A stretch of 64,000 nt of DNA from Desulforamulus ruminis DSM 2154. Its GTDB lineage: Bacteria; Bacillota; Desulfotomaculia; Desulfotomaculales; Desulfotomaculaceae. The number at the start of each line of letters is the position of its first letter. Within the stretch, counting starts at the first letter, position 1. The notes under the pieces are model-generated. The model was given only the letters and a program-made list of their open reading frames with translations, was not told the origin of the DNA and did not search any database. Below, one piece after another: positions 19,437 to 43,395 of the stretch. The position numbers and the translations under genes were made by a program. Location of the stretch: positions 3,546,120 to 3,610,119 of the forward strand of contig NC_015589.1 of NCBI RefSeq assembly GCF_000215085.1, written 5' to 3'.

Positions 19437-21659
19437 TTAGTCATTTTTTCCTGTGTTAACCATATTCATTAACTTCACTTTCCAAGCGGGTAAATCCTTG
19501 ACCTGCAGTTCATTATGATTATCCGTTGCAGATATTTCGCAGCCCGTTACGGTCTTTGACCGGGAACTTTTACTTTTTCCCCCATTTTCTGTAATACCGG
19601 ACGAACCAGAAGATTTATTGCTTCTCCTCACTGTGGCCCGTCTGACTACTTTTCCTTCGACGACATCCTTCACCGAACTTAGTGGATGAAGTCCTTTGTA
19701 TTCATTATTTTTTTCTCCGTTAGCTTGTCGTTCAATTTCCATGTACCTTACCTGCTCATTACGCAGCACTTGCTTTGCCATCATTAAAAAGGACTGCACA
19801 TGAGGCTCCTGTCTAATGTCAATTTGATATTTTTCTTGCATATATTTCCAATAGGCTTGAATGTATTTTTCCGGACAGCCGGGTTTCAAATAATCTGAAG
19901 CAAAAGTAAGGCGGCTCCCATATTTTATCGCCAAATCCTCAAGCTGCAATATGACCTCCTCTCGTTTCAGCTTCATGCGGCCATAACCGTAAGGTTTTCC
20001 CTTTCCGATTTGCACTTTGCTTTCCGCTTCCAGCATAATAGCCCATAAAAGCAGACCCAATTCATCCTGGGCAAGGTTGGAAAAACGTATCCGGCCTTGA
20101 AAGTATGTATCCTTTGGTAAGGGTCGCAAATAGGATAAAATTCTGTCGTTTTTCTTATGGTTTTTTTCAAGGCGCTCTTCCTCTTTAAACCAGTAGCGCT
20201 TCATGCCACGGATGGTAAAGTTAGGTTCATTGTATGTTGCCAATTCTCCGGTGCTAGGGGCATCCGGCTGCTTTAAATACAGGGGATAAGCCGTCGCCTT
20301 CGGCTCGGCAAGGATCAAAGGAATGGGGTCCATCTCACACGGGTTGCCAACGGCCTGCATATCCTCAAAGGAAATACGGCTTTTGTAAGCCTGAACGGCG
20401 TCCGGCTCTGCCAATTCTCCATCGTTAGAAGAAGGATACGCGCTGAAACCAAACAGGCTCTTGCAGTAATCCAGTTGATCCCCCGCACGAAAGGCTTGAG
20501 GGATGCCTTGATGCACGCTATAATCGTAGAAAATACGCAAATACGGTGTAAAACCAAAATACGTGATCTTTCCGGCAGTCTCCACATAGAAAATGGGTTT
20601 GCGCCTGCCCGCTTCCTCGGGCAAATGGTAAAATTCATATTCCTTGTCCAGTCTTTCGTTGCCTTTATATTTCTTACGTATCAAATCGGTATTATAGGCA
20701 TCGACATAGGTCTTGTCAATGGCCCGTCCGGGGATATTCTCTTCAGCCGCTCGAATAATATAGTGCGTTAATTTGCCCGATTTCCCCGCGTACATATACC
20801 CCGATGAAAGAAGATAGCCCTCTTCCATCTGACCTTCTGCTGAAACGGCATCTTTTATTACAATCTTGCCAACCTTTCCCTTGGCAGCATCCATGGTGTA
20901 GCAGACCGGTACATAATAAGGCCTATACCCGTGCTTATCGTAGTATTCTTTATTTATGTCTTGCGGTGTCAATTTGTTTATGTCCTGCTCCCAAAACTCT
21001 TTTTTATACATCAATTTAACCTTGTCTGGAGGAAGCTTCATTCTTCTCAGATGCCTTTCAGAAATCCGGTACATTTGGACCCCTTTTTTATCCTGCTGAG
21101 CCGGAAAGATGTAGTATTTCCCATCCTCTCCTTTTTCCACATAGCCCGCCTTCAATTTATCCGGTAATGCTCCCCGTTCCTGCTGCTGGGCGCTTTGTAT
21201 ATTGTGCGAAACAATACCAAGGTTGGCTCGATACTGTGCTTTAAGCCTTTGATTTCGACTGGCCATATCCCGGTACAGAAACCATTGGTTTTCGATATCA
21301 TCACGATAATTGCACATGCCCAATATCTGGATATGACTGCGAATCATCCCCCGCATACTGCTGCCCGGAATTGCAAAACCTTGGTGGTTACGAAAAAACC
21401 CTTCTTCCTTATGCCCGATAAATACCGGCGTTTCCGCCTTCCATTTCAAGTCAATGCTGCCGCTTAGCAATCCGTCCCCATAACGATCATGGGGAGGCAG
21501 TTGCTCAAAACCGTCATACCGGGCAACCCAGCGCCGGGGAAAATCAATAAAATTGTACGGCGCGCCCACATATTCGAAATTCCCCTTACTTTGCCTGGCG
21601 TCATGGGAGGAGTTGGAAGATTTATCTGACGGATGCTGATCCCGATTAAATTTAGCCAT
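19437..21659 (-). CDS. Type III-D RAMP protein, TIGR03986/All1473-like
   Basis: 740 residues. A Cas7-type RAMP domain begins near residue 65 (PVFIGHKEEGFFRNHQG, then AIPGSSMRGMIRSHI, the glycine-rich IPGSS signature). A second RAMP-like half follows, ending with GKGKPYGYGRMKLK around residue 560. The last ~170 residues are charged and partly low in complexity. Large RAMPs of this kind are an identifying part of type III-D modules. At the position where Csm3-like proteins have the RNA-cleaving Asp, this protein has no Asp (HKEEGFFRNHQG). It starts 1 nt after the csx19 stop and is the last gene of the operon. Confidence 0.8.
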   Translation of the reverse strand: MAKFNRDQHPSDKSSNSSHDARQSKGNFEYVGAPYNFIDFPRRWVARYDGFEQLPPHDRYGDGLLSGSIDLKWKAETPVFIGHKEEGFFRNHQGFAIPGSSMRGMIRSHIQILGMCNYRDDIENQWFLYRDMASRNQRLKAQYRANLGIVSHNIQSAQQQERGALPDKLKAGYVEKGEDGKYYIFPAQQDKKGVQMYRISERHLRRMKLPPDKVKLMYKKEFWEQDINKLTPQDINKEYYDKHGYRPYYVPVCYTMDAAKGKVGKIVIKDAVSAEGQMEEGYLLSSGYMYAGKSGKLTHYIIRAAEENIPGRAIDKTYVDAYNTDLIRKKYKGNERLDKEYEFYHLPEEAGRRKPIFYVETAGKITYFGFTPYLRIFYDYSVHQGIPQAFRAGDQLDYCKSLFGFSAYPSSNDGELAEPDAVQAYKSRISFEDMQAVGNPCEMDPIPLILAEPKATAYPLYLKQPDAPSTGELATYNEPNFTIRGMKRYWFKEEERLEKNHKKNDRILSYLRPLPKDTYFQGRIRFSNLAQDELGLLLWAIMLEAESKVQIGKGKPYGYGRMKLKREEVILQLEDLAIKYGSRLTFASDYLKPGCPEKYIQAYWKYMQEKYQIDIRQEPHVQSFLMMAKQVLRNEQVRYMEIERQANGEKNNEYKGLHPLSSVKDVVEGKVVRRATVRRSNKSSGSSGITENGGKSKSSRSKTVTGCEISATDNHNELQVKDLPAWKVKLMNMVNTGKND

Positions 21660-21660
21660 G

Positions 21661-22089
21661 TCACTCGCCTCCCTTTGATGATCCCAAATTCGCTTCCAGT
21701 TTCAACGGTCTTGTGTACACAACATGAAACTGTCCATCCTCATCCGCTTCCAAATAGTTGCGAATACAAAGCGTTTTCCCAAAATCGTCCATCCTCTGAA
21801 TAAATTGGCGTTCATCCAAACATTCCTCAGTCCCCGTTTCAGTACACCAAATGACCTGCCAGCCATGATCCAGCCGGTAGAAATGCACGGCTACCGTTTC
21901 GCCGAACCAATAGGCTTCAAACAACTGCTCCATCTCAATTTCCCGGGGAGACGGCGCATGATAAGGATATGCTTCTATATGGTCCCAATAATAGAGTAGC
22001 GCCTGGGTCATTCCTTGATCCGCAAGCCATTCCTTACTCACTTCGGACGGGGCGACCGGCGTCAATTTAACTCCTTGGGTCTTGTCCAT
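21661..22089 (-). CDS. csx19: Csx19-like type III-D protein
   Basis: 142 residues from the ATG at 22089 (MDKTQGVKLTPV), which follows the preceding stop by two bases and has GGAGTG upstream. It has the TIGR03984/Csx19 pattern of a central LFEAYWFGETVAVHFYRLDHGW followed by short strands and a C-terminal YLEADEDGQFHVVYTRPLKL. Function unknown; found only in type III-D modules, probably a complex subunit. Identification rests on pattern and context. Confidence 0.6.
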   Translation of the reverse strand: MDKTQGVKLTPVAPSEVSKEWLADQGMTQALLYYWDHIEAYPYHAPSPREIEMEQLFEAYWFGETVAVHFYRLDHGWQVIWCTETGTEECLDERQFIQRMDDFGKTLCIRNYLEADEDGQFHVVYTRPLKLEANLGSSKGGE

Positions 22090-22091
22090 GT

Positions 22092-23429
22092 TTAACTCAC
22101 TCCTTTTAACGCACAAATCCAATGATTGGCCAAATTTTCATTATCCACCCGGCGGTCGCCGAAATGAACCGTCACCTTCCCCTCCGGCGTGGCAATCTGC
22201 AAATTTTCCCCACACAGATAGCCCCGCCCGTTGGCAGAGCCGCTTCCCAATGCGAAGCCCTTTTCAGCCAAATCCCGCAGCGCCAATAACAGCGCTCCGG
22301 CAATCGCTTCATAATCCTTCCCTTGTTTACCGGGCTGCAAAAACAAATCAAAAGTAACTTTTCCCCGAACTGTTCTTTCCTGTTTTAATGCCCCGTTTAT
22401 CACACCGCCGGTAAATTTATCAATGTGAATTCCAAAATAGTCTACCCATTGCCGCTCCAATTGTTGATCTTCTTCAATCATGGCGTCCATTACCTGGACA
22501 ATACCCCCATACCGGTCGCCATTGGCTTTTTTATCTCCTGGCGACGGCTCCGCATCGCTCCCAAAAGCTTGTTCTTCCAATTCGGGACGACCGTAATAAT
22601 GCACAATGCGGCATAATTGGTGGCGAAGGGCCCCTTTCCAACTGGTTCCCGGGATATACCACTTGCCATCTGCCGTACGAATAGGAGCTGCGTCCGGTTC
22701 TCCCGGCCAGGAAAATTCATCCCCGCGAATCAATAATGGAGAAACGATTTTAGCCTTCAAGGTGTACCTATAACCGGGCAGGGAAACATTCTCATCCATA
22801 ATCCTTTTCATCCACCGCCCCTTGAGCGTGGTTGTTTGCTCCCCGTCCTCCTGCAAAAAATCAAAGTAATCGTCCAGCTGATTTAAATTATAAGTATTCC
22901 TATAGATATGGTTAATGGACAGCCGTCCACCGCCGGCATTCTTGAAAGCTCCCAGGCGAACAATGCCTTGATGTAAGGCTTGCAAGCACTTTTCTATGGC
23001 CTGAGCATAGGCTTGGTTCTGTTCTTCATGGGCCGCAGTCCACACCAGTCTACCTCGAAATACGGCTCCCGGAGCAATATATATCCGTTCCAATTTGTCT
23101 ACAGCCGCACCGGCGGCTCCATGAATACGCACACCCGGGCGCTCTTCCCTAAGGGCTATTTTTTCACTAACCAGATCGTGAACATACAAATTCGATGGGC
23201 GTCTTCCATCCGGCTTAGGACTGCCAAACAAGGAGAGCCATACCTGGCGTTCCACTGCACCGCTTTGTTTCAACCAGGCTCGCAACGCTCCCCCCAAAGA
23301 ACTGCCCGGGATCATAGCGCAACCGCTTTCCCCATCCATGAGCAGTTCTCCATCCTGGTCTCCCACATGCAAAGGTCCGACATTTGTTGCTTCAAAAAGC
23401 AGTACGGTCACATACTGTTTCCAACTCAT
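22092..23429 (-). CDS. Tandem-RAMP (double Cas7/Csm3-like) protein, type III-D
   Basis: 445 residues made of two Cas7-like domains. The first has MIPGSSLGGALR (~39-50) with Asp32 just before and a Gly-rich loop FKNAGGGRL (~162). The second has YIPGTSWKGALRH (~258-270) preceded by Asp246 and ends with the loop LGSGSANGRGYL. Both domains keep an acidic residue where Csm3 uses Asp for cutting target RNA every 6 nt. Fused Cas7 domains are found in types III-D and III-E. The ATG overlaps the csx10 stop by 4 nt. Confidence 0.8.
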   Translation of the reverse strand: MSWKQYVTVLLFEATNVGPLHVGDQDGELLMDGESGCAMIPGSSLGGALRAWLKQSGAVERQVWLSLFGSPKPDGRRPSNLYVHDLVSEKIALREERPGVRIHGAAGAAVDKLERIYIAPGAVFRGRLVWTAAHEEQNQAYAQAIEKCLQALHQGIVRLGAFKNAGGGRLSINHIYRNTYNLNQLDDYFDFLQEDGEQTTTLKGRWMKRIMDENVSLPGYRYTLKAKIVSPLLIRGDEFSWPGEPDAAPIRTADGKWYIPGTSWKGALRHQLCRIVHYYGRPELEEQAFGSDAEPSPGDKKANGDRYGGIVQVMDAMIEEDQQLERQWVDYFGIHIDKFTGGVINGALKQERTVRGKVTFDLFLQPGKQGKDYEAIAGALLLALRDLAEKGFALGSGSANGRGYLCGENLQIATPEGKVTVHFGDRRVDNENLANHWICALKGVS

Positions 23430-25066
23430 ACTTTCTGCCTCCTTTGCTTCTTAAAATTAGCTAATCTTCGACGTTCCCGCACGTATTGATATAACATTTC
23501 CATGTTGAGGCAATACACCTCTTCTTTAGACAACAAGACCTTGGCCTCCTGTCCCGCAATACTCAACTCCGGCAACTGTAAGGAATGGATCAGTTCATCC
23601 ACGTCATCCGCCTGCCGTATATAGCTGTGGATTTGCTCCAACCACGGTTTTTTGCCAATTCGTGCGTCCCTTAGCGAATGCAATACCCTTTGATTGGCTC
23701 TTTCGGTTTCTTCGCTTTTCCCTTTTTGCTCCTTCCCCCGCTTCTCCAAATACAGGATATATTGTTCAATTTCCGCCTTACCCGCATCCGGCGCCAGCCC
23801 TTTCGCACGATTAAAAAGATCCATCCATTGTGCCAGTTGTGATGATGAAATCGCTTTGTCATCGCTATCCTGGGACCATTCCAAAATCCGGTTTTCCAAA
23901 CCAGCACGAATTCGCTGCATCATCACGCGCTTGAGCATCTGCTGTACTTGCCTGAGTTCTTCCTGATTAAGCCGGAAGTCCGAAACCTGCCGGGACATGG
24001 GCAGAGCCTCTCCTTTGCCCACCAACTCCACTTTCATGTCCGGTAATAAGGCAATCCGTCCAAACCCGTCAACACGTCTTTCCCCAATCCCCTGGTGCAA
24101 AAACTGCTCCGCTTTTGATTGATCTATGTTGCCTTCATAACGAAATTTAAAGATACTTCCTTTCCGGATTGCCTGCTGCTTCGGCAGCCGCGCACCCCAT
24201 TTCTGATTAAATCCATCCGTAGTAATGGTTTGTACGGCAGCAGACTCCAGAAAAGCCTTATCCACACCTAGACCTGCCGCCAAAATGTGCTCCGGTATTC
24301 GTGAACTTAAACGTCCTTTTTCATCCCGGACGATAATATCGGATAGACAATAGACATAAAGCGTCTGGGAAAAAACCGGCCAATTATCTCCATATTCAGG
24401 ATTTTCTGTCCGTCTGGTTACACTGATCACCCGGCATTTGCCGTAGCCATTACTTTTGGAACCGCCTAAATAAATGATTTTATTGGTAAATGACTGCAGA
24501 AATGTCTTGATCTCGTCATCTTCATGGTCCACAGCCACTACAGCAATAAAGGTTTGCCCTGCGGCAATGGCTTCATAGCGATACAAGCGGGTTTGTTCCC
24601 CCTGCAAGTTAATGTGCAGTTTAGCCGTCATTTTCGTTTGATGCCAGGTAATTTGTTCCGCAGTCCAATCCGAAATAAAACCGGCGGCAGGCAACCGTTC
24701 CATCTGTTCGCCAATCAAGTGGTCCAGTGAGTTAACTACAGGCGCCGGCTGATTCTGCTCGCTAAAAAGCTTCCGGTTATTCTTGGTCATACAAAGGCAG
24801 GCCGGGAATGGCCGGCTTCTTTGTCCGTCAATACTTATATAACCATTGAGAAACCTTAAATCCCCTTCCAGCCATCGCTTGCGCATTAGACTGTCTCTAC
24901 ACAATTGAATTTCAGGTTTTTCCCGCACATAAGCTCCAATAAATGCACCCCGTAAAGCAGAACCCGCGATATAATCAAGGGCTGTCTCATTATCTGCCTG
25001 AGACCCCGTTCCCCCCATCTTAAGAGGCTGGAGCGTCTTCAACTCATAGTAATAATAAACGGTCAT
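23426..25066 (-). CDS. csx10: Csx10 (Cas5-like RAMP) with long helical C-terminus
   Basis: 546 residues from the ATG at 25066, which overlaps the preceding stop (ATGA). The N-terminal RAMP fold (LKTLQPLKMGGTGSQADN, then YIAGSALRGAFIGAYV) is typical of Csx10, the Cas5-group subunit that holds the crRNA 5' handle in III-D complexes. A second RAMP-like half ends in GERRVDGFGRIALLPD (~330). Residues ~370-546 are nearly all helical and charged (LRQVQQMLKRVMMQRIRAG and following) and may replace a separate Cas11/Csm2 small subunit, which I do not find in the operon. Confidence 0.82.
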   Translation of the reverse strand: MTVYYYYELKTLQPLKMGGTGSQADNETALDYIAGSALRGAFIGAYVREKPEIQLCRDSLMRKRWLEGDLRFLNGYISIDGQRSRPFPACLCMTKNNRKLFSEQNQPAPVVNSLDHLIGEQMERLPAAGFISDWTAEQITWHQTKMTAKLHINLQGEQTRLYRYEAIAAGQTFIAVVAVDHEDDEIKTFLQSFTNKIIYLGGSKSNGYGKCRVISVTRRTENPEYGDNWPVFSQTLYVYCLSDIIVRDEKGRLSSRIPEHILAAGLGVDKAFLESAAVQTITTDGFNQKWGARLPKQQAIRKGSIFKFRYEGNIDQSKAEQFLHQGIGERRVDGFGRIALLPDMKVELVGKGEALPMSRQVSDFRLNQEELRQVQQMLKRVMMQRIRAGLENRILEWSQDSDDKAISSSQLAQWMDLFNRAKGLAPDAGKAEIEQYILYLEKRGKEQKGKSEETERANQRVLHSLRDARIGKKPWLEQIHSYIRQADDVDELIHSLQLPELSIAGQEAKVLLSKEEVYCLNMEMLYQYVRERRRLANFKKQRRQKV

Positions 25067-25737
25067 GATGTAGTCACCCACTCCCGTAATTCCTGAATAT
25101 ACTTTGCTGTGACATCCGTTCCTTTATGGATTAAGGCACAACGAACCCATCCCTTGCCGCGGTGTTTCATTGTTCCCAAATAGCGGAGACTGCTTAATCC
25201 CGCAGCCAATAGTCCAATTTCATGTCCACGCAAGCAATCCAAACCGTCAATCTCCGCCTCCAGCACAAGATCCTTCCGAATTATTCGAAATTTACGCAAA
25301 GACCTTTTTTCTACCGTGCCCGTCTCGTCATTGATCGCTGTAAACCTGCGTATATCTGTCATGGAATTGAACACTTCGGAAGAAGTAAGCTGTTGTTTTT
25401 GAATTGCCGTAGCAAACAAAGCACGGATGGCCGGCGCTACTTGCGCATCGTTCAAATGAATTGCACCCGGCAGAGCATTAGTTATACCTCCCTGCCCGAA
25501 ACAACGGTCAACAACAGCAGCCAGTTCAGCAGCCTTTGCCCTTGACGCCGCCCCTTGACCCAACACCTTGGCCGCCAGTTTTGTTTGCTCCAGCCAATGG
25601 CCTTTCAGCGTTCTCGATCCATAGTAAGGAAAACCATAGTCATCATGCAAAACCTCCAGATCCACTTCCCCCGGCGTAGATTGCCCGCTGCCGAATATGG
25701 CCTCCGATTTCAAATGAATTCGTGCTGACCAACTCAT
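25063..25737 (-). CDS. Csm3-like RAMP (Cas7 group), type III-D
   Basis: 224 residues. Single RAMP domain: RIHLKSEAIFGSGQSTPGEV, then Asp26 and Asp32/33 in EVDLEVLHDDYG before GSRTLKGHW, and the C-terminal Gly-rich loop YLGTMKHRGKGWVRC. It is a backbone subunit that binds crRNA, with the acidic residues as candidates for target RNA cleavage. Overlaps cas10 stop by 4 nt and csx10 start by 4 nt. Confidence 0.8.
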   Translation of the reverse strand: MSWSARIHLKSEAIFGSGQSTPGEVDLEVLHDDYGFPYYGSRTLKGHWLEQTKLAAKVLGQGAASRAKAAELAAVVDRCFGQGGITNALPGAIHLNDAQVAPAIRALFATAIQKQQLTSSEVFNSMTDIRRFTAINDETGTVEKRSLRKFRIIRKDLVLEAEIDGLDCLRGHEIGLLAAGLSSLRYLGTMKHRGKGWVRCALIHKGTDVTAKYIQELREWVTTS

Positions 25738-27365
25738 AACTCCCGCTCCTCTCGTGGAAATAAAAGCACATCATCCATCGCTTCGATGGCATCATAATAT
25801 GGACAGCAGCGCTCATAAGTAAAGATCTCCCCTTGTTCCAGCGGCGTATCTTTAAAGCCCATCAAATAATCCTCCAATTGATTCAATTGGATAAATCGTT
25901 TCGTTTCCGCCGGTCCCCGTTTAATACATTCCCGCAGTTTTTTAATCTTGCTTCTGGCTATCTTCTCTTTATCGGTCATCCGCTCCCAAGCAACCTGAAA
26001 AGTTGCCAACTGGTTGAATAAACCGCTGACGGACTGACGGGCTGAAGGGCTCATCACATAATAGGGCTTCAATGTCAGGGAATAGGCTTGATTATTCGCA
26101 TCTTTCATCAGGTAATCTTCCTCCCGCTGCTGCCTGATTGAGCCCGACCAATCTCCATGCAAAATATGAAAATCGAGCGCCGAGGCATCGCCTTCCTCAA
26201 GCCGTTCAAAACCATCCTGCAGCACTCTGGTCTTCGCCATCCGGCAAAGCTGTTCAGCCATCTCATGAGCCCGGGCAAAGGGATAGCCGGACTTGACAAT
26301 GGCCACACCGGCACAAGCATGCAAGGTCATGGATACTTTGCGGGAACCTGGGCCGCCGTCAATTTCCAGCTTATCCTGTTGTAGTTTTTCCAGCATCATT
26401 CGCGCGGCCTCTACGCCAAGGGGTCCCGGAACAATAAAAGAAATATCATCCCCTGCAAAAATAATCGGCCGGACCGGAATCCCATTTTCGTTATAAGTAT
26501 TTAATGCTATCGGCTCGTCAGACACCTGAACCCGACTATATAGGTCTACCATCGCCGCTTTAAAAGCTGCTTTATACTTGGTGTCAATGTCATTGCTGAA
26601 CTGCCGAAAGGCCTCCCGGTATCTTTGATTATAGTCCCTTACTGATTCACCCTCCTTGATTTGATACAACTCTCGAAATTTAGCAATTTTCTCCCCCATC
26701 CGGTTGCCATCCAAATGGATAACAGCTACCTTACTCCTCTCCCCATCCTCCAGCACATCCGTATCACTGGTCATTTGCACCGGCAAGCCGCTTAATTGTA
26801 AATCCGCAAAGTATTCCTCCAGCTTATTGTCCTGAGCAAATTTAAGTTTGGCATAGATTTCGGCGGACACAAATCGGACTTCATCTTTAATAGTAACTAT
26901 CTCCGTTGCCGGCAGTCGGGTAGATTCGCACAACTTTTCAATCCCATAGGAATATTGCCTCAGCGACCCGGCATGTCCGCTCTTCTTTTGTGCCAACGCT
27001 TCAGATAATTCTGTAATCTTATCGGACAGAAGATCCGCCTCCGGGTTAAAATCTACCATTACGCAATAAAACTGAAGCCCGGGAAACTGTTTTAGCACCG
27101 TCCGGGACAGCATGCGATTAAATTCGTACCCTTCATGCCTGGTGTTGAACTGGTAAATACTATGTCCTCCGCCTTCCATAATCACGTTGTTTTTCCCGAA
27201 ATACGGTAAGGACAGTTCTTTGGGCAACCGCTCACTGACATGACGAATAATCATGGAAGCACCTTCAATTTCCTTTAAACGGTTGCTGGCAAAGATATAA
27301 GCCTGCTTCCTGCCGATCTCTACAATATCCAGTACAGCCACGCCATTCACCCCTTTGCATTTCAT
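25734..27365 (-). CDS. cas10: Cas10 of type III-D, without HD domain, AGDD motif
   Basis: 543 residues from the ATG at 27365; a GTG at 27341 with AAAGGGGTG upstream is an alternative start. The protein begins at once with the first palm domain (LDIVEIGRKQAYIFASNRLK, EGGGHS at ~64-69), so the HD nuclease is absent, as reported for III-D. The second palm has IIFAGDDISFIV at 302-312: the GGDD motif reads AGDD with both metal-binding Asp present. This may still make cyclic oligoadenylate. No zinc-finger cysteine cluster is seen between the palms. Large subunit of the effector complex. Confidence 0.85.
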   Translation of the reverse strand: MKCKGVNGVAVLDIVEIGRKQAYIFASNRLKEIEGASMIIRHVSERLPKELSLPYFGKNNVIMEGGGHSIYQFNTRHEGYEFNRMLSRTVLKQFPGLQFYCVMVDFNPEADLLSDKITELSEALAQKKSGHAGSLRQYSYGIEKLCESTRLPATEIVTIKDEVRFVSAEIYAKLKFAQDNKLEEYFADLQLSGLPVQMTSDTDVLEDGERSKVAVIHLDGNRMGEKIAKFRELYQIKEGESVRDYNQRYREAFRQFSNDIDTKYKAAFKAAMVDLYSRVQVSDEPIALNTYNENGIPVRPIIFAGDDISFIVPGPLGVEAARMMLEKLQQDKLEIDGGPGSRKVSMTLHACAGVAIVKSGYPFARAHEMAEQLCRMAKTRVLQDGFERLEEGDASALDFHILHGDWSGSIRQQREEDYLMKDANNQAYSLTLKPYYVMSPSARQSVSGLFNQLATFQVAWERMTDKEKIARSKIKKLRECIKRGPAETKRFIQLNQLEDYLMGFKDTPLEQGEIFTYERCCPYYDAIEAMDDVLLFPREEREL

Positions 27366-27375: not shown

Positions 27376-28293
27376 CTACTTGTCCGGTAATTCATTCCCT
27401 ACCGTCTTAAATTGCTCCGCATAGGCTTCATGTGGAAACAACATGGGATTATTAATAAGCATCAGCATTTGATTGAGCTGAAAGATAAGAGACAATATAA
27501 CATTTTCTTGCCCGTCTTTTTCAGTTATTTTTAAAACCTCAAAAGATTTATTAACCGGAGGATTACTTTCTTTAATAAAATCCTTATGGTATTTCTTATC
27601 GTCACCAAAACGCTCTAAGCCATAATGATTTAATTCTTGATACCACCATTCATAATTGTTTTTTTCCTGAGGCATTGTTTTCTTAAGGGTATTATCCTTA
27701 TCATTAATACTTAATGAAATATCGAATAAATTTGATATTTTTTTTGGAATATTCTTATTGGTAGTAGAACAAAGAATTCTTATGGGCCTTGTTGAAGTTT
27801 GGGATTTCTTCTCTTTTGAAGATGGTGTCTTCTCAGGATTGTTATTTACTAAACCCGTAATTATTCTGGCAACCGATGCCAGAGAAGTTTTAAGTTTTAC
27901 AATGCTATCCACCCATTTTTCTAAATTAGCAGCCTTAGAATCTAATTCCCGACTTTTGCACTGGATAACCACCGCTACAGCCTCAATTGGAATAAACTTT
28001 ATCTTTCCATAGTTAAAAATATACGGGGTATACTGTTCATCGAATATAGCCAAATCTACTTCAGCGGAAATCTTGCCGTAAGAATCAATAATAAATACAC
28101 CCTGGTCGATACAGAATTTACGGGGAATAATTTGTTCAAACATGCTTTTCCAGACGGCTTCTCGGTAGGTCCCGGTGGTAGGATGATGCCCAGGGGTCTC
28201 CAGACATAGTTGACTAACTAAAGATTTTTCTAGGTTTTTGTAATTCTCAATAATTTTACGTATGGTCTTCTTATCAGCCTCATCTTGTGACAT
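27376..28293 (-). CDS. PD-(D/E)XK nuclease-like protein (DUF6602-like), heads the III-D operon
   Basis: 305 residues. The central part has GVFIIDSYGKISAEVDLAIF followed by EAVAVVIQCKSREL: the EVD...E...QCK arrangement is a PD-(D/E)XK nuclease core with Gln in the (D/E)XK position, as in Mrr-type enzymes. N-terminus is helical. It lies 10 nt before cas10 on the same strand and is the first gene of the operon, with GGAGG before its ATG. It has no CARF or SAVED sensor domain that I can see. Role in the CRISPR module is inferred from position only. Confidence 0.75.
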   Translation of the reverse strand: MSQDEADKKTIRKIIENYKNLEKSLVSQLCLETPGHHPTTGTYREAVWKSMFEQIIPRKFCIDQGVFIIDSYGKISAEVDLAIFDEQYTPYIFNYGKIKFIPIEAVAVVIQCKSRELDSKAANLEKWVDSIVKLKTSLASVARIITGLVNNNPEKTPSSKEKKSQTSTRPIRILCSTTNKNIPKKISNLFDISLSINDKDNTLKKTMPQEKNNYEWWYQELNHYGLERFGDDKKYHKDFIKESNPPVNKSFEVLKITEKDGQENVILSLIFQLNQMLMLINNPMLFPHEAYAEQFKTVGNELPDK

Positions 28294-28737
28294 TGCAAAC
28301 GCCTCCTTTGGGGAAGTTTCAAAAAAACTCTTAATTTTATTTCCCGTTAGTTAGAAATTAATTGGAACACTAAAAACCCCCATATAATAATACTTAATAT
28401 ATACCTTATAACAAAATATACTCTAATTATATCAAGGTCCACATATTATTACAATTATTTTCCAATATCGATCGGCTGTCTCTTAAAGATATTAATGATG
28501 CAAAAATTTAACCCACAATTACGTTGAGAAAGTAATGGTGGGTTAAAGTGATATTACTATTCATTTGCACTTTAAATACTGTGGATATGTATACGAAGTT
28601 AGGTAAAAAGATGCCAGCTTCAGTTAGTTTATCAAAATTATAGAGAATCTTATCTTAATTAAAAAGCCAAAAAGTAGTAGTTTATATAGTCGTAACAATA
28701 TCCCGACCTGGGGGGGAAACTTCAATTATGTGTTCCC
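28294..28737. other. AT-rich intergenic region upstream of the CRISPR operon
   Basis: No supported gene, no repeat-spacer pattern. The promoter of the III-D operon should lie here on the minus strand; I could not fix one hexamer pair with confidence. Confidence 0.5.
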
Positions 28738-30285
28738 TTATACCCTTGACAACTCATCTCTGAACGCAGGTCTATTGACATATTTGTTAAAAAGCTTCTG
28801 TTTAATTTCTGAAGCCTGCTCTTGCCCACCTGCTTTTTTCAGATTACGGATAATAGCACATACTCCCTTATAATCTTTCCTGTTGCCCGCACTGGCAGCA
28901 GTCTGCTCAATATGTTGCAGAAACAGAGTGTATACCTCTTCCTTAAATTCAGGAATAAGCTGCTTATAAAAAAGCTCTATCATTGACGACCTCGTTCTAA
29001 CATAGGCAAGCAGCTTTTGTTTTTCTCCTTCTTCTATGAGAATACGGTTATATATATCATGATATGTTTTTTTCTGATTTTCCAGCAGAAGAATTATCTT
29101 GGGATAAACAGAAAGCCACTCACCGGAATCATAGCTCTTTTTTAATTCCTCGTAATATTCAAAACTACCATCCAGAATAAATTCCATGGCAATCCCGCGC
29201 AAATCATCAAGGTTGCCGGAAAGCTGAAACGCCTTGTACCGGTATTTCTTCCACTGATCTACCAGCCCGCGCCTGTCTTTATCCTTCTTTTCTCCATCAA
29301 GTGTAAGCTTAATCACCGCGTCATAGTCTTTTTTCCTCATAGCATTTTCTATCGCCATTTTCCTGAATTCCAGATAGTGAAGATTCTGTCTTATAAATTC
29401 CTGCGCTGCTTTCTGCCCGTCATACTGTTCAATCATACGGTACCTGATTAGAACAACTCTTTCTGCAAAGTAACTGCCGCTCCACGAATCCTCTCTTTCG
29501 TTTTTTATGATTAATACCAAATGATTTTCCAATTTATTTCGTAAAACCAGGGTGCCTGCAAGCTCCGAACAACTGCCAAGAAGATCCAGCCTCCAGTCGG
29601 TCCAACCTTCATATCGCCCATGCGCCGCTTCTTCTATCAGCTTCTGAAAATTGCTTTCTTTATCAACTGGGCTTAATGCTTCATCTTTAACCACTTCACG
29701 AACAAAAGTCAAGCTTTCTTCAATTTCCCCTCCGACTACCCCGTCGGAATCATCTGCGCCCTCAAGCAAATCCATAATTTCATGGATAACACAAAGAGCC
29801 AGCTCTAAAGCATGCATGGGTTTATTCTTTGCCAAAGCAGATCGGGCTTTTTCCAACACCAGATCAGCGCCCTTGACCGCCTCCCAGGTATCTCCGCAGG
29901 CAACAAACCCATGCCGATCCGAATTGTTTCTGATAAAGGTGCGCATAAGCATCATGGATTTGCGTATTTCATCCTCATCGTTTCCATCGTTAAAATCCAG
30001 TTCTATACGCTGCTTAATTTCTTCATACTCGGCTGCAATCGCCAGGAGAAATTTAACAAGTTCATCTTTCGTTCTCTCAGAAAGTATTTTCTTCATATCG
30101 GGCGCTTTTCTTTTCTTTGGAACGGATTGATGAACCGCTTCCGCGTCCGTATTGTTCGAACCTATCTTATTCTTGATATCCCGTAAAGCAAAAAATACCG
30201 CCGCTTGGTGCTTGCAATACTCTCCCCAATCATAAGGGCAGTCGCATTGATTATCTACGAGGTTTGCACCCGCCTCACTTCTAAA
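28738..30285 (-). pseudogene. SWIM zinc-finger protein lacking its start
   Basis: The open frame runs from a stop at 30286-30288 to 28738 (about 515 codons). Its first part carries CDCPYDWGEYCKHQAAV (about 30190-30245), the CxCx7CxH SWIM zinc finger, followed by a long helical region of TPR-like type. No ATG, GTG or TTG precedes the finger in frame, and the first ATG (30096) lies after it with no ribosome binding site. The usual N-terminal ~50 residues of SWIM proteins are missing, so the gene has lost its start. The rest of the frame is intact, which suggests a recent loss or use of a rare start. Confidence 0.7.
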
Positions 30286-36800: not shown

Positions 36801-38384
36801 TTAAACTTTAATTACCGTACCGTCTCTGAACGTAAAATGGATGGCATTAGCATCATGGATTATGACTTTATCAATGACTGCCAACCACAGCTTCTCATCA
36901 AACTCATCAATCACAAGCGGGCGGGTCTCGATTTCCTGTATAAACCCGTCCAGTACCAATGATTTATTTTGGCGGTTTCGCCGCTGATCCTCTAATTCGG
37001 CAATCCGGTCTGTTGCAATCCGGTGCCGCTCCATGTATCCCTGGTGCCGTTCGTTAAATTCATCCTGATTAATGGCAAAGCGGGCGTTTTCATAAATGGA
37101 TTTCCGCGTGAGTTCGGAAACAACCTCAATTTCGCGGTGCAGTTCCGCAAGTTCCATTTCAATTGCCGAGCAATCACATAAGACTTCTTGGGCTAGGTGG
37201 CAGTTGCTAAGAACCTCATCCCGATCACCCATCAATATGTTAAATGCTTTCAGAAAGCGCTGCTTAATCTCATCTTCTGTAAGATGAGGCGTGGAACAAG
37301 GTTTATCGTTTTTGTACTTATCATTGCACCGCCATACCGTGCGCCGATACTTGGTGTTGGAACCCCAAACCTTGGAGCCGTAAAAACCGCCGCAGTCACC
37401 GCAAACGATTTTAGCTGAAAATGGGCTGTGGCAACTGACTGGCCTACCGAGTTTTTTACGCCGTTCCATTTCAAGCTGCACCGCATCAAATTCGTCCGGC
37501 TCAATAATGGCGGGATGGCTATTCTGCACATAGTATTGAGGAACCTCACCCTCGTTGACTTTGGTGGTTTTGGTGAGAAAATCTACCGTGAAGCTTTTTT
37601 GCAGCAGAGCGTCACCCTTGTATTTCTCGTTAGTCAGAATGCTTATCACTGTCGCCACTTGCCAGGTTTTTTTTCCGGCCGGAGATGGGATGCCCAGATT
37701 GCCAAGATGCTTGGCGATGGCTGAAGGCGTTTTACCCTCAAGAAACATTCTGTAAATCAGCCGGACTGTTTCCGCTTCCTTTTCAACGATTTTAGGTAAA
37801 CCATCCTCACCCTTTTCGTAGCCAAGGAAATGACGATAAGGCATGCTTACTTTCCCATCAGCCATACGTTTGCGTTGGCCCCAGGTTACATTTTCAGAAA
37901 TTGAACGGCTTTCTTCCTGTGCCAGGCTGGACATAATAGTGATTAAAAGCTCCCCCTTACTGTCCAGCGTGTAAATGTTCTCCTTTTCGAAATAAACCTC
38001 AACGCCTTTTTCTTTTAGCTGGCGAACCGTAACCAGAGAGTCAACTGTGTTTCTCGCAAAGCGGCTAACTGATTTGGTAACAATCAGATCGATTTTCCCG
38101 TTCAGTGCATCGGCAACCATCTGCTTAAACCCATCGCGCTTTTTGGTATTGGTGGCACTGATACCTTCGTCGGTGTAGATTCCGGCAAATATCCAATCAG
38201 CACGTTCGTTGATGTACTTAGTGTAGTAGTCTACCTGGGCTTCGTAGCTGGTAAGCTGTTCCTCAGAATCTGTTGAAACACGGGCATATGCAGCTACTCT
38301 TTTTCTTGCGGCCACACCAATCGTTTCCGGCGCAAAGCGGTTTATGGTTGGTGGTATAACAGTAACGGCTCGAGCTGGTTTCAC
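36801..38384 (-). CDS. Large serine recombinase, second of a tandem pair
   Basis: 527 residues from a GTG at 38384 that overlaps the upstream stop (GTGA) and has GGGGAG 7 nt upstream. Resolvase domain with catalytic Ser in VAAYARVSTDSEEQLTSYEA and conserved DLIVTKSVSRFARN. Recombinase domain and zinc ribbon follow (CGDCGGFYGSK ... CNDKYKNDKPCSTP), then a coiled coil (~420-480). Performs site-specific integration and excision of the prophage or related element. Confidence 0.92.
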   Translation of the reverse strand: MKPARAVTVIPPTINRFAPETIGVAARKRVAAYARVSTDSEEQLTSYEAQVDYYTKYINERADWIFAGIYTDEGISATNTKKRDGFKQMVADALNGKIDLIVTKSVSRFARNTVDSLVTVRQLKEKGVEVYFEKENIYTLDSKGELLITIMSSLAQEESRSISENVTWGQRKRMADGKVSMPYRHFLGYEKGEDGLPKIVEKEAETVRLIYRMFLEGKTPSAIAKHLGNLGIPSPAGKKTWQVATVISILTNEKYKGDALLQKSFTVDFLTKTTKVNEGEVPQYYVQNSHPAIIEPDEFDAVQLEMERRKKLGRPVSCHSPFSAKIVCGDCGGFYGSKVWGSNTKYRRTVWRCNDKYKNDKPCSTPHLTEDEIKQRFLKAFNILMGDRDEVLSNCHLAQEVLCDCSAIEMELAELHREIEVVSELTRKSIYENARFAINQDEFNERHQGYMERHRIATDRIAELEDQRRNRQNKSLVLDGFIQEIETRPLVIDEFDEKLWLAVIDKVIIHDANAIHFTFRDGTVIKV

Positions 38385-39691
38385 TTCAAATCTCCCCTTT
38401 GGTAGGCAAGCGCCCTTTCCCGCGCCTGCTGTTTCTTTTTGTCGTCCCAGCTTGATTTGCGTGACCGGTCTTGCCAAGTGGCTTCAACTTCATGACCGTC
38501 TTGAAAAATATAAATTACCTTGTTTGCTTGCGGCACCTGCATCTGCTTAATCTTGGATAGGAAAACCCCCTCATCAAATTCCGGTAGGCCCAACACTTCA
38601 GCGGTCAGCGACAATAAGATTGGTTCTGGAATCTGTTTGGCTGGGCAGACATCCTTGCCGTAATTGACGAAGGTGGAACAGTTCCAGGCTGCATGCCCCT
38701 TGTAGGTTACCCGCCGATAGTTCTTGCCGCAGCGAGGGCAGAAGATTAAGCCTGAAAATGGGTAACGGTTGACCGGGTTTTGCCTGACATTTCTGTTCTC
38801 CCGGCGTAGAGCCATGATTTCCTGCGCCTTTTGAAAGGTGAGAGGGTCTATAATCGGCGGATGGGTTCCTTCGGCATAGTACTTTGGCAGGATTCCCCGG
38901 TTATAAACCAGCTTCTTTGACAAGTGGTCGGCTACATACTTTTTCTGAAGCAGCGCGTTGCCAGAATACTTCTCGTTATTTAGGATGGCTAGGACTCGCT
39001 TTGCTGTCCACTGTCTGCCGCTGAACGTTCGCGCACCCATTTCCCGCAGTCTGGCAGCAATCCGATCGCAACCCAGGCCGTTTATGTAATCGGCGTAGAT
39101 CATTCGAACGATTTCGGCCTGTTCCTGATCGATTTCAATTTGACCATGGTTGATTCGATACCCGTACATGAAACGCAGGTTTACAATCTCACCTTGCTGG
39201 AACCGCTTGCGAATCCTCCACTTACAGTTCTCACTAACCGAACGGCTTTCCTCCTGAGCATAGGATGCCAGGATGGTTAGCATAAGTTCGCCATCCCCGC
39301 TCATGGAATGAATATTCTGCTCCTCAAAATAAACGTCAACACCGAGCAGTTTTAGTTCCCGCACTGTTTCAAGAAGTGTTACCGTGTTGCGGGCAAAACG
39401 TGATATCGATTTTGTAATGATCAGGTCAATCTTGCCATCCTTGCAGTCAGCAATTAGACACTGAAATTCCGGGCGAGTGTCTTTGGTTCCTGTCAGTGCC
39501 TCGTCGGCGTATACACCAGCATATTCCCAATAAAGTCGCTGCTGAATGAGGTTGCTGTAATAGCTGACTTGAGCTGCCAGAGATTGTAACATAGCATCTT
39601 TTCCGGATGATACGCGGGCATAAGCGGCAACCCGTAATCTAGCAGGGATTGGTGGCACCGAAGGGGATATTTTCGTAACTATCTTTTCCAT
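38381..39691 (-). CDS. Large serine recombinase, first of a tandem pair
   Basis: 436 residues. Resolvase domain with VAAYARVSSGKDAMLQSLAA, DLIITKSISRFARNTVTLLE and QEESRSVSENCKWRIRKRF; recombinase domain; zinc ribbon FCPRCGKNYRRVTYKGHAAW. It lacks the long coiled coil of its partner, ending in a short basic tail. It is translationally coupled to the following recombinase, so the two proteins are made together and may act as a heteromer. GGAGG before the ATG. Confidence 0.92.
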   Translation of the reverse strand: MEKIVTKISPSVPPIPARLRVAAYARVSSGKDAMLQSLAAQVSYYSNLIQQRLYWEYAGVYADEALTGTKDTRPEFQCLIADCKDGKIDLIITKSISRFARNTVTLLETVRELKLLGVDVYFEEQNIHSMSGDGELMLTILASYAQEESRSVSENCKWRIRKRFQQGEIVNLRFMYGYRINHGQIEIDQEQAEIVRMIYADYINGLGCDRIAARLREMGARTFSGRQWTAKRVLAILNNEKYSGNALLQKKYVADHLSKKLVYNRGILPKYYAEGTHPPIIDPLTFQKAQEIMALRRENRNVRQNPVNRYPFSGLIFCPRCGKNYRRVTYKGHAAWNCSTFVNYGKDVCPAKQIPEPILLSLTAEVLGLPEFDEGVFLSKIKQMQVPQANKVIYIFQDGHEVEATWQDRSRKSSWDDKKKQQARERALAYQRGDLK

Positions 39692-40511: not shown

Positions 40512-41219
40512 TCAATGTTGTTGAGACGAAATATATTCAGCCATTCGTTCAATAAGTAGTCCGGCATATTCTCCCTTAATGGTTTTACCCGGCCGGGCAT
40601 TTTCCAGCCAATATTCGGGGGATTTAAGTATACCGTTTCTTACCAACACCTCCAAAGCTTCTTCCAGACCATTCTGGCTCTCTTCTATGTATGCTAACCC
40701 CAGTTGGGAAAGGATAGCGCCAGCAACTGCTTTGATAATTTCATCTCTCTTGGCATAAAACAGTGCATTGTCCTGGCTGTTATCAATAAAGCCGATTTCG
40801 ATTAGTACTGCAGGGGCCTTTGTTTCTCTTAAGACTTGATAATTAGCAGTTTTCACCCCCCGGTTTGCAAAACCGACCCCCACCAGGGAGCTTTGAATTT
40901 TTTCGGCCAGCCCCTTTGACTTGGCTCCCGGATTTAAATAAGTGTAAGTTTCTACACCAGCAGCCGTTTCCGGCTTAAAAGCATTACGGTGAAATGATAT
41001 GAAGTAATCAAAGCTACCCTTGTTTTCAAAATCACATCTAGCTTTCAGGCTTACACTAACATCAGCCGTCCTGGTCTCATCGATGATTACTCCATGGCGT
41101 CTCAACACTGCTGCTACGGCCCGACCCAGGCTCAGCACATCATCGGCTTCTTTTCTTCCTTTATATACTGCGCCCGGGTCATTGCCGCCATGTCCGTAGT
41201 CAAAACATAATCTAGCCAT
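40512..41219 (-). CDS. Endolysin, N-acetylmuramoyl-L-alanine amidase (Amidase_3)
   Basis: 235 residues. Amidase_3 domain over residues 1-175: CFDYGHGGNDPGAVYKGRKE (zinc His and Glu), FISFHRNAF (second His) and AVLIEIGFIDN (catalytic Glu). The C-terminal ~55 residues form a small helical domain (LEEALEVLVRNGILKSPEYW), likely the SPOR-like or cell-wall binding tail of clostridial prophage lysins. No signal peptide, so it needs the holin. Overlaps the holin stop by 8 nt. Confidence 0.93.
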   Translation of the reverse strand: MARLCFDYGHGGNDPGAVYKGRKEADDVLSLGRAVAAVLRRHGVIIDETRTADVSVSLKARCDFENKGSFDYFISFHRNAFKPETAAGVETYTYLNPGAKSKGLAEKIQSSLVGVGFANRGVKTANYQVLRETKAPAVLIEIGFIDNSQDNALFYAKRDEIIKAVAGAILSQLGLAYIEESQNGLEEALEVLVRNGILKSPEYWLENARPGKTIKGEYAGLLIERMAEYISSQQH

Positions 41220-41613
41220 TAATCTTTTCCTCCTTATTGAGTTGGTCCAAAACCAGTTTGAGTTTCTCCGGAATAGGTAGGCCGATCTTGGCTGCGTTTT
41301 CCAGAATACTGATCCCTTCGTTGGATAAGTAGAAGAAGATGACGGCGGTACGGACAGCGCTACCGTTTGTTATAACCTGGGTATCTATAATGTGGCCCAC
41401 TGCCACCAGGGCAAAAATCAGCACCTTCTTAAAGATGCCCCTTGCACCGACCTCGCTGGAAAGGCGTTTTTCCAGTATGGCCGACATGACGCCGGTCAGG
41501 TAATCGATAACCACAAAGGTAATCAGCGCGTATAAAAAGCCGTCCCAGCCTCCCAAGACCCAGCCCAGCCAGCCGCCAAAGGCTGTTAAGGCGATTTGAA
41601 ATGAGCTTTTCAT
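41212..41613 (-). CDS. Phage holin (TcdE/BlyA-type)
   Basis: 133 residues with at least three membrane segments: FGGWLGWVLGGWDGFLYALI, ITFVVIDYLTGVMSAIL and FALVAVGHIIDTQVI. The DYLTG motif and the sequence SNEGISILENAAKIG are typical of the Phage_holin_4 family. It makes the membrane pore that releases the amidase at lysis. Confidence 0.92.
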   Translation of the reverse strand: MKSSFQIALTAFGGWLGWVLGGWDGFLYALITFVVIDYLTGVMSAILEKRLSSEVGARGIFKKVLIFALVAVGHIIDTQVITNGSAVRTAVIFFYLSNEGISILENAAKIGLPIPEKLKLVLDQLNKEEKING

Positions 41614-41686
41614 TGTTAGTCCTCCTTAAAATTGGCAATAAAAAAGAGCCCCATGGCCCATTCTGAAAAATAACTTAAGCTGCCGA

Positions 41687-42109
41687 TTATTCGATAGCTG
41701 ATGCAATCCTGCCTGACACTTCCTTTTGTATATCAGTTGGCACCTGATCAATGGTTCTCCTTCCTGCAAGCACCAATTCAGCCATCAATTCAGTGCTGAC
41801 CGTGCCGGGATTTGCTTCCGAAAGTTTGGCTACAGCCTCCATCAGTACTAAACTATACTTTTCAAGCTTGGCTACTTTTTCGTCCAGCGTTATATTTCTG
41901 CCGCCGCTTACTTTGTTATTCCATTCAGCAGTCGGTATCAGTTCCAGATGGCATCCTTCTTTATTTACAACCTTTATAGCTTCATAATTGGATAAATTAA
42001 GTTCAGGGTCATGGGCAAAGACATAGTCCTGTCCCGGAGCCAGTACCGGTTCAGTCTCAGATGCTTGCACTACTAAACCGTCGTTCTTGTTATATACTAA
42101 AAACAACAA
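41687..42109 (-). CDS. Uncharacterised phage protein near the lysis module
   Basis: 140 residues. N-terminal beta-rich part (MLFLVYNKNDGLVVQASETE, DYVFAHDPELNLSNYE) and a helical C-terminus (LDEKVAKLEKYSLVLMEAVA). Such proteins lie between fibre and holin genes in many clostridial prophages; they may be fibre-associated or chaperone-like. Family not recognised. Confidence 0.7.
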   Translation of the reverse strand: MLFLVYNKNDGLVVQASETEPVLAPGQDYVFAHDPELNLSNYEAIKVVNKEGCHLELIPTAEWNNKVSGGRNITLDEKVAKLEKYSLVLMEAVAKLSEANPGTVSTELMAELVLAGRRTIDQVPTDIQKEVSGRIASAIE

Positions 42110-42124
42110 GTCTGCCTCCCTTCG

Positions 42125-42652
42125 TTAATACCTGTAGATTTCCAGCTTGCCTACCATAGATCCGCCGCCCCCGCTGGAAACAGAAAAATATATGGTGACG
42201 GATAGGGAAGAGCGAAAGGGGATAGCTAAATTGGCTCTGCTGTCAATTACATTGAGTTTCCCCGCTGAATCAGCAAACAAAATAACATCAGATGCTCCCC
42301 AGGCTACACTACCATTCACAGAACCAAAGGCAGGTAGGGCCATTCCGTCAACTGTTACGGTAGCCCGGCATCTACTGGTCCATGAGGACGAACCACTGGC
42401 TTGTATATATATGTTTTGCAATATACCTGTGCCATTATAGGAGATGGTTACACTTTGTTCAGTACTGTTCCAGCCGCTAGTGTTTGATGATATAGTGCTT
42501 AACTGCATGATGGTGTAGTTCTTTATATAATTTTGCATAACATCTTTCAGGTTGCCGATTTTGGCATGTAGACTACCCGCCGGATCAGCGGCATCGTTCC
42601 TTACTCCGACCTGTCTGCGGATAAAAGCCAGAATTTCTTCTGAGCCAAACAT
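42125..42652 (-). CDS. Putative tail fibre/receptor-associated protein
   Basis: 175 residues from the ATG at 42652, which shares a base with the upstream stop (TAATG) and has GGGGGGTGG upstream. Short helical N-terminus, then a Ser/Gly/Thr-rich beta region (SSNTSGWNSTEQSVTISYNG, ending in VYFSVSSGGGG-like turns). Typical of fibre-tip domains. Specific function unknown. Confidence 0.65.
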   Translation of the reverse strand: MFGSEEILAFIRRQVGVRNDAADPAGSLHAKIGNLKDVMQNYIKNYTIMQLSTISSNTSGWNSTEQSVTISYNGTGILQNIYIQASGSSSWTSRCRATVTVDGMALPAFGSVNGSVAWGASDVILFADSAGKLNVIDSRANLAIPFRSSLSVTIYFSVSSGGGGSMVGKLEIYRY

Positions 42653-43392
42653 TACACCACCCCCCGTTTTAATATCTCGCCTGACCATTGATAGGTTTTG
42701 ATCTGCCTGACCCCGCCTATAAAACCGGAAGCAGGGGGCAGGTACCGGTAGGCTTTGGAGATTAGATCACCGTCCCATATAAGCCAGGTAACGGCGTTGT
42801 AGCCATAGATGCCATGCAAAAGGTTGCCCGTTTCCCCGTTATATACCTCAAAGTGGATGGCGTTCTCTGCTGTCCAGGCTCCGCTGTTTCCCGCTCTTCT
42901 GTAAGTAGGATATAAGGAGTCTTGTATGGTTTCACCATGCAGGTGAAAGTGGTTATCGGCATCCCCGGCTTTTTTAATGATCAGCCAGTAGTAAGCGCCG
43001 CTCACTAAGTCAGATATATCTATAGGGATGCTGAAATATCCCTTGCTGGTGGGAATAAACTCTTTGGGCAGCACCATGAATCTGAGCAACGAACCCGCTG
43101 TCGAACCATCCGGATTAAAGCCGTCCCGCAGTTCGACCAAGAGATCAGCACCCTGACCATGCCTGATAATTTCAAAGGTTACTCTCGCGATAGCGGCGGC
43201 GGTATCGGCTTTAAACCGCACCGCATGGTCATAACCGGCACAGTCAAATTCAGCTATGCCCGCTCCGGTTTTGCCACCAAAAACGGTGCCTTCATAAATA
43301 TGCGAAAATTCCTGCATCATCATAGCAGCATTAGCCAGGTTCTCATCGATTACTGTTCGGCCGCTTTCAGCTGCAAACAACACAAAAATCAC
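42652..43392 (-). CDS. Putative tail fibre / baseplate wedge protein
   Basis: 246 residues, beta-rich, with jelly-roll-like carbohydrate-binding features (YYWLIIKKAGDADNHFHLHG, YNAVTWLIWDGDLISKAYRY). It lies in the distal-tail block of the late operon. Likely part of the receptor-binding apparatus, by position. Confidence 0.6.
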   Translation of the reverse strand: MIFVLFAAESGRTVIDENLANAAMMMQEFSHIYEGTVFGGKTGAGIAEFDCAGYDHAVRFKADTAAAIARVTFEIIRHGQGADLLVELRDGFNPDGSTAGSLLRFMVLPKEFIPTSKGYFSIPIDISDLVSGAYYWLIIKKAGDADNHFHLHGETIQDSLYPTYRRAGNSGAWTAENAIHFEVYNGETGNLLHGIYGYNAVTWLIWDGDLISKAYRYLPPASGFIGGVRQIKTYQWSGEILKRGVV

Positions 43393-43395
43393 CCC

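What the first reader, a model, noticed from the sequence alone, without database searches (positions are those of the whole stretch)
27376..28293. PD-(D/E)XK nuclease-like gene heading the III-D operon
A DUF6602-like protein with EVD...QCK motif is 10 nt upstream of cas10 and has no sensor domain. Since Cas10 lacks its HD nuclease, this protein could supply DNA cutting to the complex, an association I do not know as described.
Basis: inference. Interest (0 to 1): 0.7.

Follow-up and report, generated by a model that had tools for sequence, protein, structure and literature searches.

The report
CRISPR-linked NucC nuclease, altered active site
A gene at the head of a bacterial type III CRISPR operon encodes a relative of NucC, a DNA-cutting suicide enzyme switched on by a small ring-shaped RNA signal; the pairing is already known, but this lineage has swapped one catalytic residue in a way that deserves a bench test.

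Summary
The gene is real: minus strand, 27376-28293, 305 aa, first in a seven-gene III-D operon, 10 nt before an HD-less cas10. It is not an unassigned nuclease: sequence (Serratia NucC, E 1.2e-13; PADLOC NucC model, E 1.9e-100) and predicted fold (pLDDT 82.6; all 14 PDB chains at E<=0.001 are NucC) place it in the NucC family. NucC has no separate sensor domain because the cA3 pocket is built into its trimer, so the likely mechanism is activation by a cyclic oligoadenylate made by Cas10. NucC beside a Cas10 without a working HD domain is published, as is a III-D NucC-Cas10 fusion. In a sample of 398 genomes of the phylum, 3 of 21 genomes with a strong Cas10d have the gene next door, the window's own included. 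The unusual part is the active site: the Glu of ExK, needed for interference by Serratia NucC, is Gln (EVD...QCK) in 11 of 18 long NucC-like sequences collected here, from several Bacillota families. Asp80, Lys113 and Glu78 are invariant and selection is purifying, so a rewired but active nuclease is likelier than a dead one. New variant of a known kind.

The parts
27376..28293 (-). NucC-like nuclease, 305 aa; E78-V-D80 ... Q111-C-K113
25734..27365 (-). Cas10d, 543 aa, no HD domain, AGDD cyclase motif and HLDGN palm motif
25063..25737 (-). Cas7 (III-D RAMP), 224 aa
   Evidence: PDLC02113, E 1.4e-74
23426..25081 (-). Cas5/Csx10, 551 aa
   Evidence: PDLC02090, E 1.2e-65; Csx10 model E 8.4e-24, below its cut-off
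22092..23429 (-). Cas7 (two RAMP stretches), 445 aa
   Evidence: PDLC02111, E 5.5e-52
21661..22122 (-). Csx19-like (presumed small subunit), 153 aa
   Evidence: PDLC01528, E 4.9e-10; Csx19 model E 1.5e-5, below its cut-off
19437..21659 (-). Cas7 (TIGR03986 type), 740 aa
   Evidence: PDLC02116, E 2.4e-259; E 3.3e-96
28492..28552 (-). Terminator-like hairpin between the upstream 452-aa gene and nucC
   Evidence: -16.7 kcal/mol, z -6.5, followed by UUUUU; the consensus scan listed no terminator here
28426..28454 (-). Promoter-like site TTGTAA-17-TATAAT with TG before the second hexamer
   Evidence: 10 of 12; consensus match only, 9 sites found against 6.7 expected in shuffles

Best explanation
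It is the effector nuclease of the III-D system and a variant of the NucC family. Proposed steps: the Csx10/Cas7/Cas10 complex binds phage RNA; Cas10, which has no HD nuclease but keeps the acidic cyclase residues, makes a cyclic oligoadenylate, most likely cA3; this binds a pocket formed by a NucC-like homotrimer; trimers pair into hexamers and cut double-stranded DNA, which aborts the infection. The active site is rewired: Gln111 replaces the usual Glu of ExK, and Glu78, two residues before the catalytic Asp80, is proposed to supply the missing carboxylate. Shown here: gene, operon, homology, predicted fold, conservation, kept cyclase motif. Inferred: cA3 as ligand, oligomer, DNA cutting, abortive infection, role of Glu78.
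For: Homology: PADLOC NucC PDLC01051 E 1.9e-100 over residues 2-298; five solved NucC sequences, E 1.2e-13 to 1.1e-11, and nothing else at E<=1. Fold: pLDDT 82.6; the only PDB chains at E<=0.001 are 14 of NucC; Z 14.2-16.0 to NucC, next NgoMIV at 8.8. Signal source: Cas10 keeps GDD and DGN in 10 of 10 III-D loci with the gene; no SMODS-type CD-NTase match in the genome (PF18144). Coupling: nucC is immediately upstream of cas10 on the same strand in 10 of 10 such loci, gap -26 to +33 nt (start codons uncertain). Active site: in 18 long sequences E78, D80, E104, C112 and K113 are invariant and position 111 is Q in 11 and E in 7; 5 CBASS-type sequences have Q, D, E, K at 71, 73, 104, 106. Constraint: dN/dS 0.16 for a Q pair, 0.24 for an E pair. 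PD-QxK sites occur in MspJI-family enzymes that cleave in vitro (PMC12707154, passages). Precedent: an HD-less Cas10 making cA3 that activates NucC in V. metoecus III-B (PMC8682760, abstract).
Against: In Serratia NucC, E114A (the equivalent Glu by its 31-residue spacing from the Asp) loses interference (PMC13060164, passages), so a natural Gln there could mean loss of activity. Positions that I recall as cA3 contacts in E. coli NucC differ: Arg53 is Lys59 and Thr226 is Asn282 (aligned; Tyr81 is kept as Tyr88), so the ligand may not be cA3. The first Gly of the Cas10 GGDD motif is Ala here. Foldseek TM-scores to NucC are only 0.36-0.45 by query length with rmsd 6.8-11.4. The model is a monomer; trimer, pocket and hexamer were not modelled, and the distance of Glu78 from the metal site was not measured. 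No CRISPR array was found in the window or the 20 kb beyond its right end (exact 23-base repeats only), so the system needs guides made elsewhere and could be inactive.
Confidence: 0.75

Rival explanations
1. Catalytically dead NucC (pseudo-nuclease): Gln111 has removed cleavage and the protein now works as a cyclic-oligoadenylate sensor, sink or scaffold for Cas10.
For: E114A of Serratia NucC, the equivalent residue, loses interference (PMC13060164, passages). Gln is present in 11 of 18 long sequences.
Against: D80, K113 and C112 are invariant in 18 of 18, which a dead site would not need. The tree puts one Q row (L009) with E rows and needs two changes; 4% of 200 bootstrap trees need only one, and a single Q clade is not quite rejected (p-AU 0.059). 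A return from Q to E would argue against death; two separate losses would not. No other nuclease was recognised in the operon and Cas10 has no HD domain.
Confidence: 0.2
2. One reading: the nuclease docks on Cas10 and cuts DNA as part of the complex, without a diffusible signal.
For: Overlapping or adjacent genes in 10 of 10 III-D loci. A published NucC-Cas10 fusion in a III-D locus, which its authors suggest may let NucC hexamerise while associated with the complex (PMC11229360, passages).
Against: NucC has an in-built cA3 switch; GDD and DGN of Cas10 are kept in 10 of 10; the same protein family also sits in III-B and III-A-like clusters, and in L009 it lies at the far end of the cluster, about 3.3 kb after cas10, so it is not tied to III-D Cas10.
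Confidence: 0.12
3. It responds to another messenger (cA4, cA5, cA6 or SAM-AMP) rather than cA3.
For: Positions recalled as pocket contacts differ from CBASS-type NucC (R53 to K59, T226 to N282), each fixed in 18 of 18 long sequences; Cas10 motif variants AGDD, DGDD and SGDD.
Against: The NucC proteins whose activator is named in the passages and PDB titles seen respond to or bind cA3. Lys and Asn can replace Arg and Thr in hydrogen bonding.
Confidence: 0.15

Closest known systems
NucC of Serratia type III-A (PDB 7zgv, 7zgw) and V. metoecus type III-B (6uxf, 6uxg)
   Same: Fold (Z 14.4-15.5), place in a type III locus, Cas10 with no HD domain or a degenerate one (PMC8682760, PMC13060164, passages), D and K of the active site.
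   Different: 305 aa against about 245-255; QCK in place of ExK; E78 before the Asp; III-D; sequence matches end by residue 135.
CBASS NucC (E. coli MS115-1, 6p7o, 6p7p)
   Same: Fold, Tyr81 kept as Tyr88, D and K of the active site, no separate sensor domain.
   Different: Here Cas10 is the presumed signal maker (no SMODS match in the genome); QID...ExK has become EVD...QCK; K59 and N282 at the places of R53 and T226.
NucC and NucC-Cas10 fusion of Virgibacillus pantothenticus III-D (PMC11229360, passages)
   Same: NucC tied to a III-D Cas10.
   Different: There one copy is fused and one stands alone; here one free copy. Its active site was not seen here.
Mrr/MspJI-type PD-QxK restriction enzymes
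   Same: Gln in place of Glu in the ExK position of a PD-(D/E)XK fold (PMC12707154, PMC4926085, passages).
   Different: Other families; no cyclic-nucleotide switch.

Membership tests
NucC | Sequence homology to solved NucC | tested here: met
NucC | NucC fold | tested here: met
   (predicted monomer)
NucC | D...ExK catalytic residues of the characterised enzymes | tested here: not met
   D80 and K113 met, Glu replaced by Gln111. It is therefore filed as a variant of the NucC-like family, not as a canonical NucC.
NucC | Homotrimer binding cA3, then hexamer | not testable with these tools
   needs protein; contact positions partly changed (the contact list is recalled)
NucC | Encoded with a cyclic-oligonucleotide maker | tested here: met
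   Cas10 10 nt downstream with AGDD and DGN motifs; its activity is inferred
Type III-D CRISPR-Cas | Cas10d, Csx10/Cas5, Cas7 and Csx19 genes together | tested here: met
   (Csx19 weak; Csx10 and Csx19 under the NCBIfam cut-offs)
Type III-D CRISPR-Cas | Cas10 without HD nuclease (usual in III-D: HD in 3% by PMC11229360, passages) | tested here: met
Type III-D CRISPR-Cas | CRISPR array in cis (common, not obligatory) | tested here: not met
   none in the window or the 20 kb beyond its right end; arrays lie elsewhere in the genome
DUF6602 (PF20247) | Match above the curated cut-off | tested here: met
   74.9 bits, cut-off 27

The most novel reading that the evidence does not exclude
A type III CRISPR-associated lineage of NucC in which the catalytic carboxylate has moved from the ExK motif to the residue two before the catalytic Asp (QID...ExK to EVD...ECK to EVD...QCK), with altered messenger-pocket residues, so that it may answer to a different cyclic oligoadenylate or cut DNA differently, and which is translationally coupled to, and perhaps acts at, the III-D complex.
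Probability: 0.35. Interest if true: 0.6.

Novelty: new variant of a known kind. Interest (0 to 1): 0.4.

Why it matters
It turns an apparently new nuclease into a relative of a known effector and explains how an HD-less III-D system could still attack DNA. If the Q variant is active, it shows that a residue needed in one NucC can be replaced when a second carboxylate is at hand, a clear test of active-site plasticity in the PD-(D/E)XK fold. If it is dead, it would be a signal sensor or sink in type III immunity. Searches that demand the ExK motif would miss this lineage.

Tried and rejected
Considered and rejected: an unrelated DUF6602 enzyme of restriction type (the 14 PDB chains at E<=0.001 are all NucC); a CBASS cargo (no SMODS match in the genome; other CD-NTase families were not searched); transcription from the upstream gene (terminator-like hairpin between them). 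A NCBIfam hit to a fimbrial protein (E 0.0063, 16 bits, cut-off 210) was taken as chance.

Led nowhere: scans of viral contigs with the long alignments confirmed no relative; the phage records gave none; other viral scans gave CBASS-type or distant DUF6602 relatives or nothing. The first structure model, with 10 rows, was poor (pLDDT 59.9); the second, with 14 rows, was good. Trees could not settle whether Q arose once. dS of window against L002 was saturated.

Limits of the counts: of 90 plasmid records matched only 3 were opened (H1, H13, H28). Rows dropped: L029 and L039 from the residue table and the second tree, CBASS-type rows from the second tree; L030-L032 and L052-L055 were in neither tree. 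G069 (locus L058, a match with stops inside) counts among the 8 of 398 genomes but gave no ORF and is in no other count. L008 has a stop before about residue 20, so its first residues are missing. Nine loci were found by likeness to the query, so 11 of 18 with Q is no population estimate; and the Q and E groups are named by that very site. Cas labels of L004-L008, L010, L040 and L056 rest on BLAST or profile matches to window or relative genes, not on PADLOC. Only one literature search asked for glutamine; it listed two papers, of which I saw the listing only; the other searches and the passages read did not mention a Q variant. All cover open-licence papers; Lau et al. 2020 is not held and was not read.

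Full report
Observation. The ORF lies on the minus strand at 27376-28293 and encodes 305 residues. It is followed after 10 nt by cas10 (25734-27365) and then, with gaps of -4, -19, -4, -31 and +1 nt, by cas7, csx10/cas5, cas7, csx19-like and cas7 genes. Upstream, a 452-aa gene without any Pfam, PADLOC or NCBIfam match is separated by 444 nt that hold a terminator-like hairpin (z -6.5 against 200 shuffles), a promoter-like site (weak) and a ribosome site AAAGGAGG.

Identity. Pfam gives DUF6602 (E 5.3e-21). PADLOC gives NucC over residues 2-298 (E 1.9e-100), a CRISPR-associated PD_DExK model (1.3e-25) and a second NucC model (7.8e-24). Among solved structures only NucC sequences match at E<=1: Serratia 7zgv 1.2e-13, 6q1h 1.7e-12, E. 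coli 6p7o 2.1e-12, V. metoecus 6uxf 4.5e-12, E. coli 6p7p 1.1e-11; these alignments end by residue 135. The AlphaFold2 model from 14 rows has pLDDT 82.6 and pTM 0.85. Foldseek finds 14 PDB chains at E<=0.001, all NucC, with TM-scores of 0.36 to 0.45 by query length and rmsd 6.8 to 11.4. VIA-align gives Z 14.2 to 16.0 to seven NucC entries over 189 to 204 residues (rmsd 3.5 to 4.7), then NgoMIV at 8.8.

Neighbour test. In 398 genomes of the same phylum, 8 match the NucC model at E<=1e-10. Four of them match at E<=1e-80, and all four have a type III cas10 in the same cluster: own, G156 and G189 III-D, directly next door; G367 III-B, with cmr1 between. In the same sample 38 genomes match Cas10d at E<=1e-20 and 21 at E<=1e-60; 3 of these 21 (own, G156, G189) have the NucC-like gene next to it. 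As a control, 9 loci with more distant DUF6602 genes and 4 with short CBASS-type NucC had no cas10 hit in the stretches fetched, some cut short by contig ends; 3 of the 4 short ones have a CD-NTase or CD-NTase-like neighbour. So the long form goes with type III, and NucC is one minor effector among III-D systems. None of the 8 other genomes of the own genus searched has a match at E<=1e-10, which suggests horizontal gain.

Published context. PMC11229360 (passages) finds NucC in 35 loci of a set of 1113 type III loci, describes a NucC-Cas10 fusion in a III-D locus of V. pantothenticus, and finds HD domains in only 3% of III-D. PMC8682760 (abstract and passages) reports an HD-less Cas10 making cA3 that activates NucC. 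PMC9704534 (passages) describes NucC as a non-CARF, non-SAVED effector and gives 31 type III loci. PMC12669027 (passages) names NucC with the III-A2 variant. The pairing is thus known.

Active site. The spacing from Asp to the position of the catalytic Glu is 31 residues here (80 to 111), as in CBASS-type rows (73 to 104) and Serratia (83 to 114, numbers from PMC13060164, passages). In a joint alignment 18 long sequences have E78, D80, E104, C112 and K113 without exception, and Q111 in 11, E111 in 7. Five CBASS-type sequences have Q71, D73, E97, E104, K106. The Glu/Gln pair is thus exchanged between the two ends of the series, with ECK as the form that has both. DSSP puts 79-84 and 106-113 on strands, so 78 and 80 should point to the same side (inference). 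In Serratia, E114A and D83Q each lose interference, so Gln here matters. PD-QxK sites are found in MspJI-family enzymes, which cleave in vitro (PMC12707154). dN/dS is 0.16 for the Q pair L006/L007, 0.24 for the E pair L028/L056 and 0.24 for two tandem Q copies in L002. The tree of the 18 rows needs two changes; 4% of 200 bootstrap trees need one; one Q clade is not quite rejected (p-AU 0.059).

Signal. Cas10 in all 10 III-D loci keeps GDD (GGDD 1, AGDD 2, SGDD 1, DGDD 6) and the DGN motif. Positions that I recall as cA3 contacts of E. coli NucC (Arg53, Tyr81, Thr226; from memory, no call) are Lys59, Tyr88 and Asn282, each fixed in 18 of 18. cA3 is the best guess, not shown.

Guides. No array lies in the window or in the 20 kb beyond its right end (exact repeats only; for 14-34 kb). 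The genome has a cas1 with two arrays at 1.43 Mb (repeats GTCGCTCTCT...GTGGATTGAAAT and ...GTGGATTTAAAC) and a cas6b/cas1 locus at 3.06 Mb with a 47-copy array beside it. Arrays near relatives L004, L005 and L010 share GTGGATTGAAAT with one of the 1.43 Mb arrays, so guides from there are a reasonable guess.

Verdict. It is a NucC-like effector with a variant active site, most likely switched on by a Cas10-made cyclic oligoadenylate; the Gln111/Glu78 swap is the part worth testing.

Noticed in passing
window 40512-58340 with 36801-39691: A siphovirus-type prophage (terminase, portal, major head, major tail, tape measure, holin, endolysin) with two serine recombinase genes side by side lies upstream of the III-D operon.
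   Followed up: partly
G000:C1 1.43 Mb (L033) and 3.06 Mb (L025, L096): Two further CRISPR loci in the genome, one with arrays of 57 and at least 17 repeats (the second is cut by the end of the stretch), one with cas6b/cas1 and a 47-repeat array; the III-D operon has none and may borrow guides.
   Followed up: partly
L002 2640-4824: Two tandem NucC-like genes, both with QCK, ahead of one III-D cas10; they could form mixed trimers.
   Followed up: partly
L003 9923-10981: A QCK NucC-like gene with no hit to my cas profiles within about 10 kb; neighbours look like transporter genes (by eye): an orphan or a remnant.
   Followed up: no
window 28738-30096: A 452-aa gene without any Pfam, PADLOC or NCBIfam match directly upstream of the operon, on the same strand but behind a hairpin.
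   Followed up: partly
window 10078-12093: A 671-aa protein whose second half matches the AAA-HTH part of PADLOC RtcR/PspF CARF models (E 6e-104); its first half was not matched, so a CARF domain is not shown.
   Followed up: no
L004, L005, L006, L007, L008, L010 (about 9.0-10.0 kb): A gene of 302-304 aa precedes nucC in these six III-D loci; the L004 copy is Cas6 by PADLOC, the others look alike by eye, as does a 351-aa gene in L002. The window's operon lacks it.
   Followed up: partly
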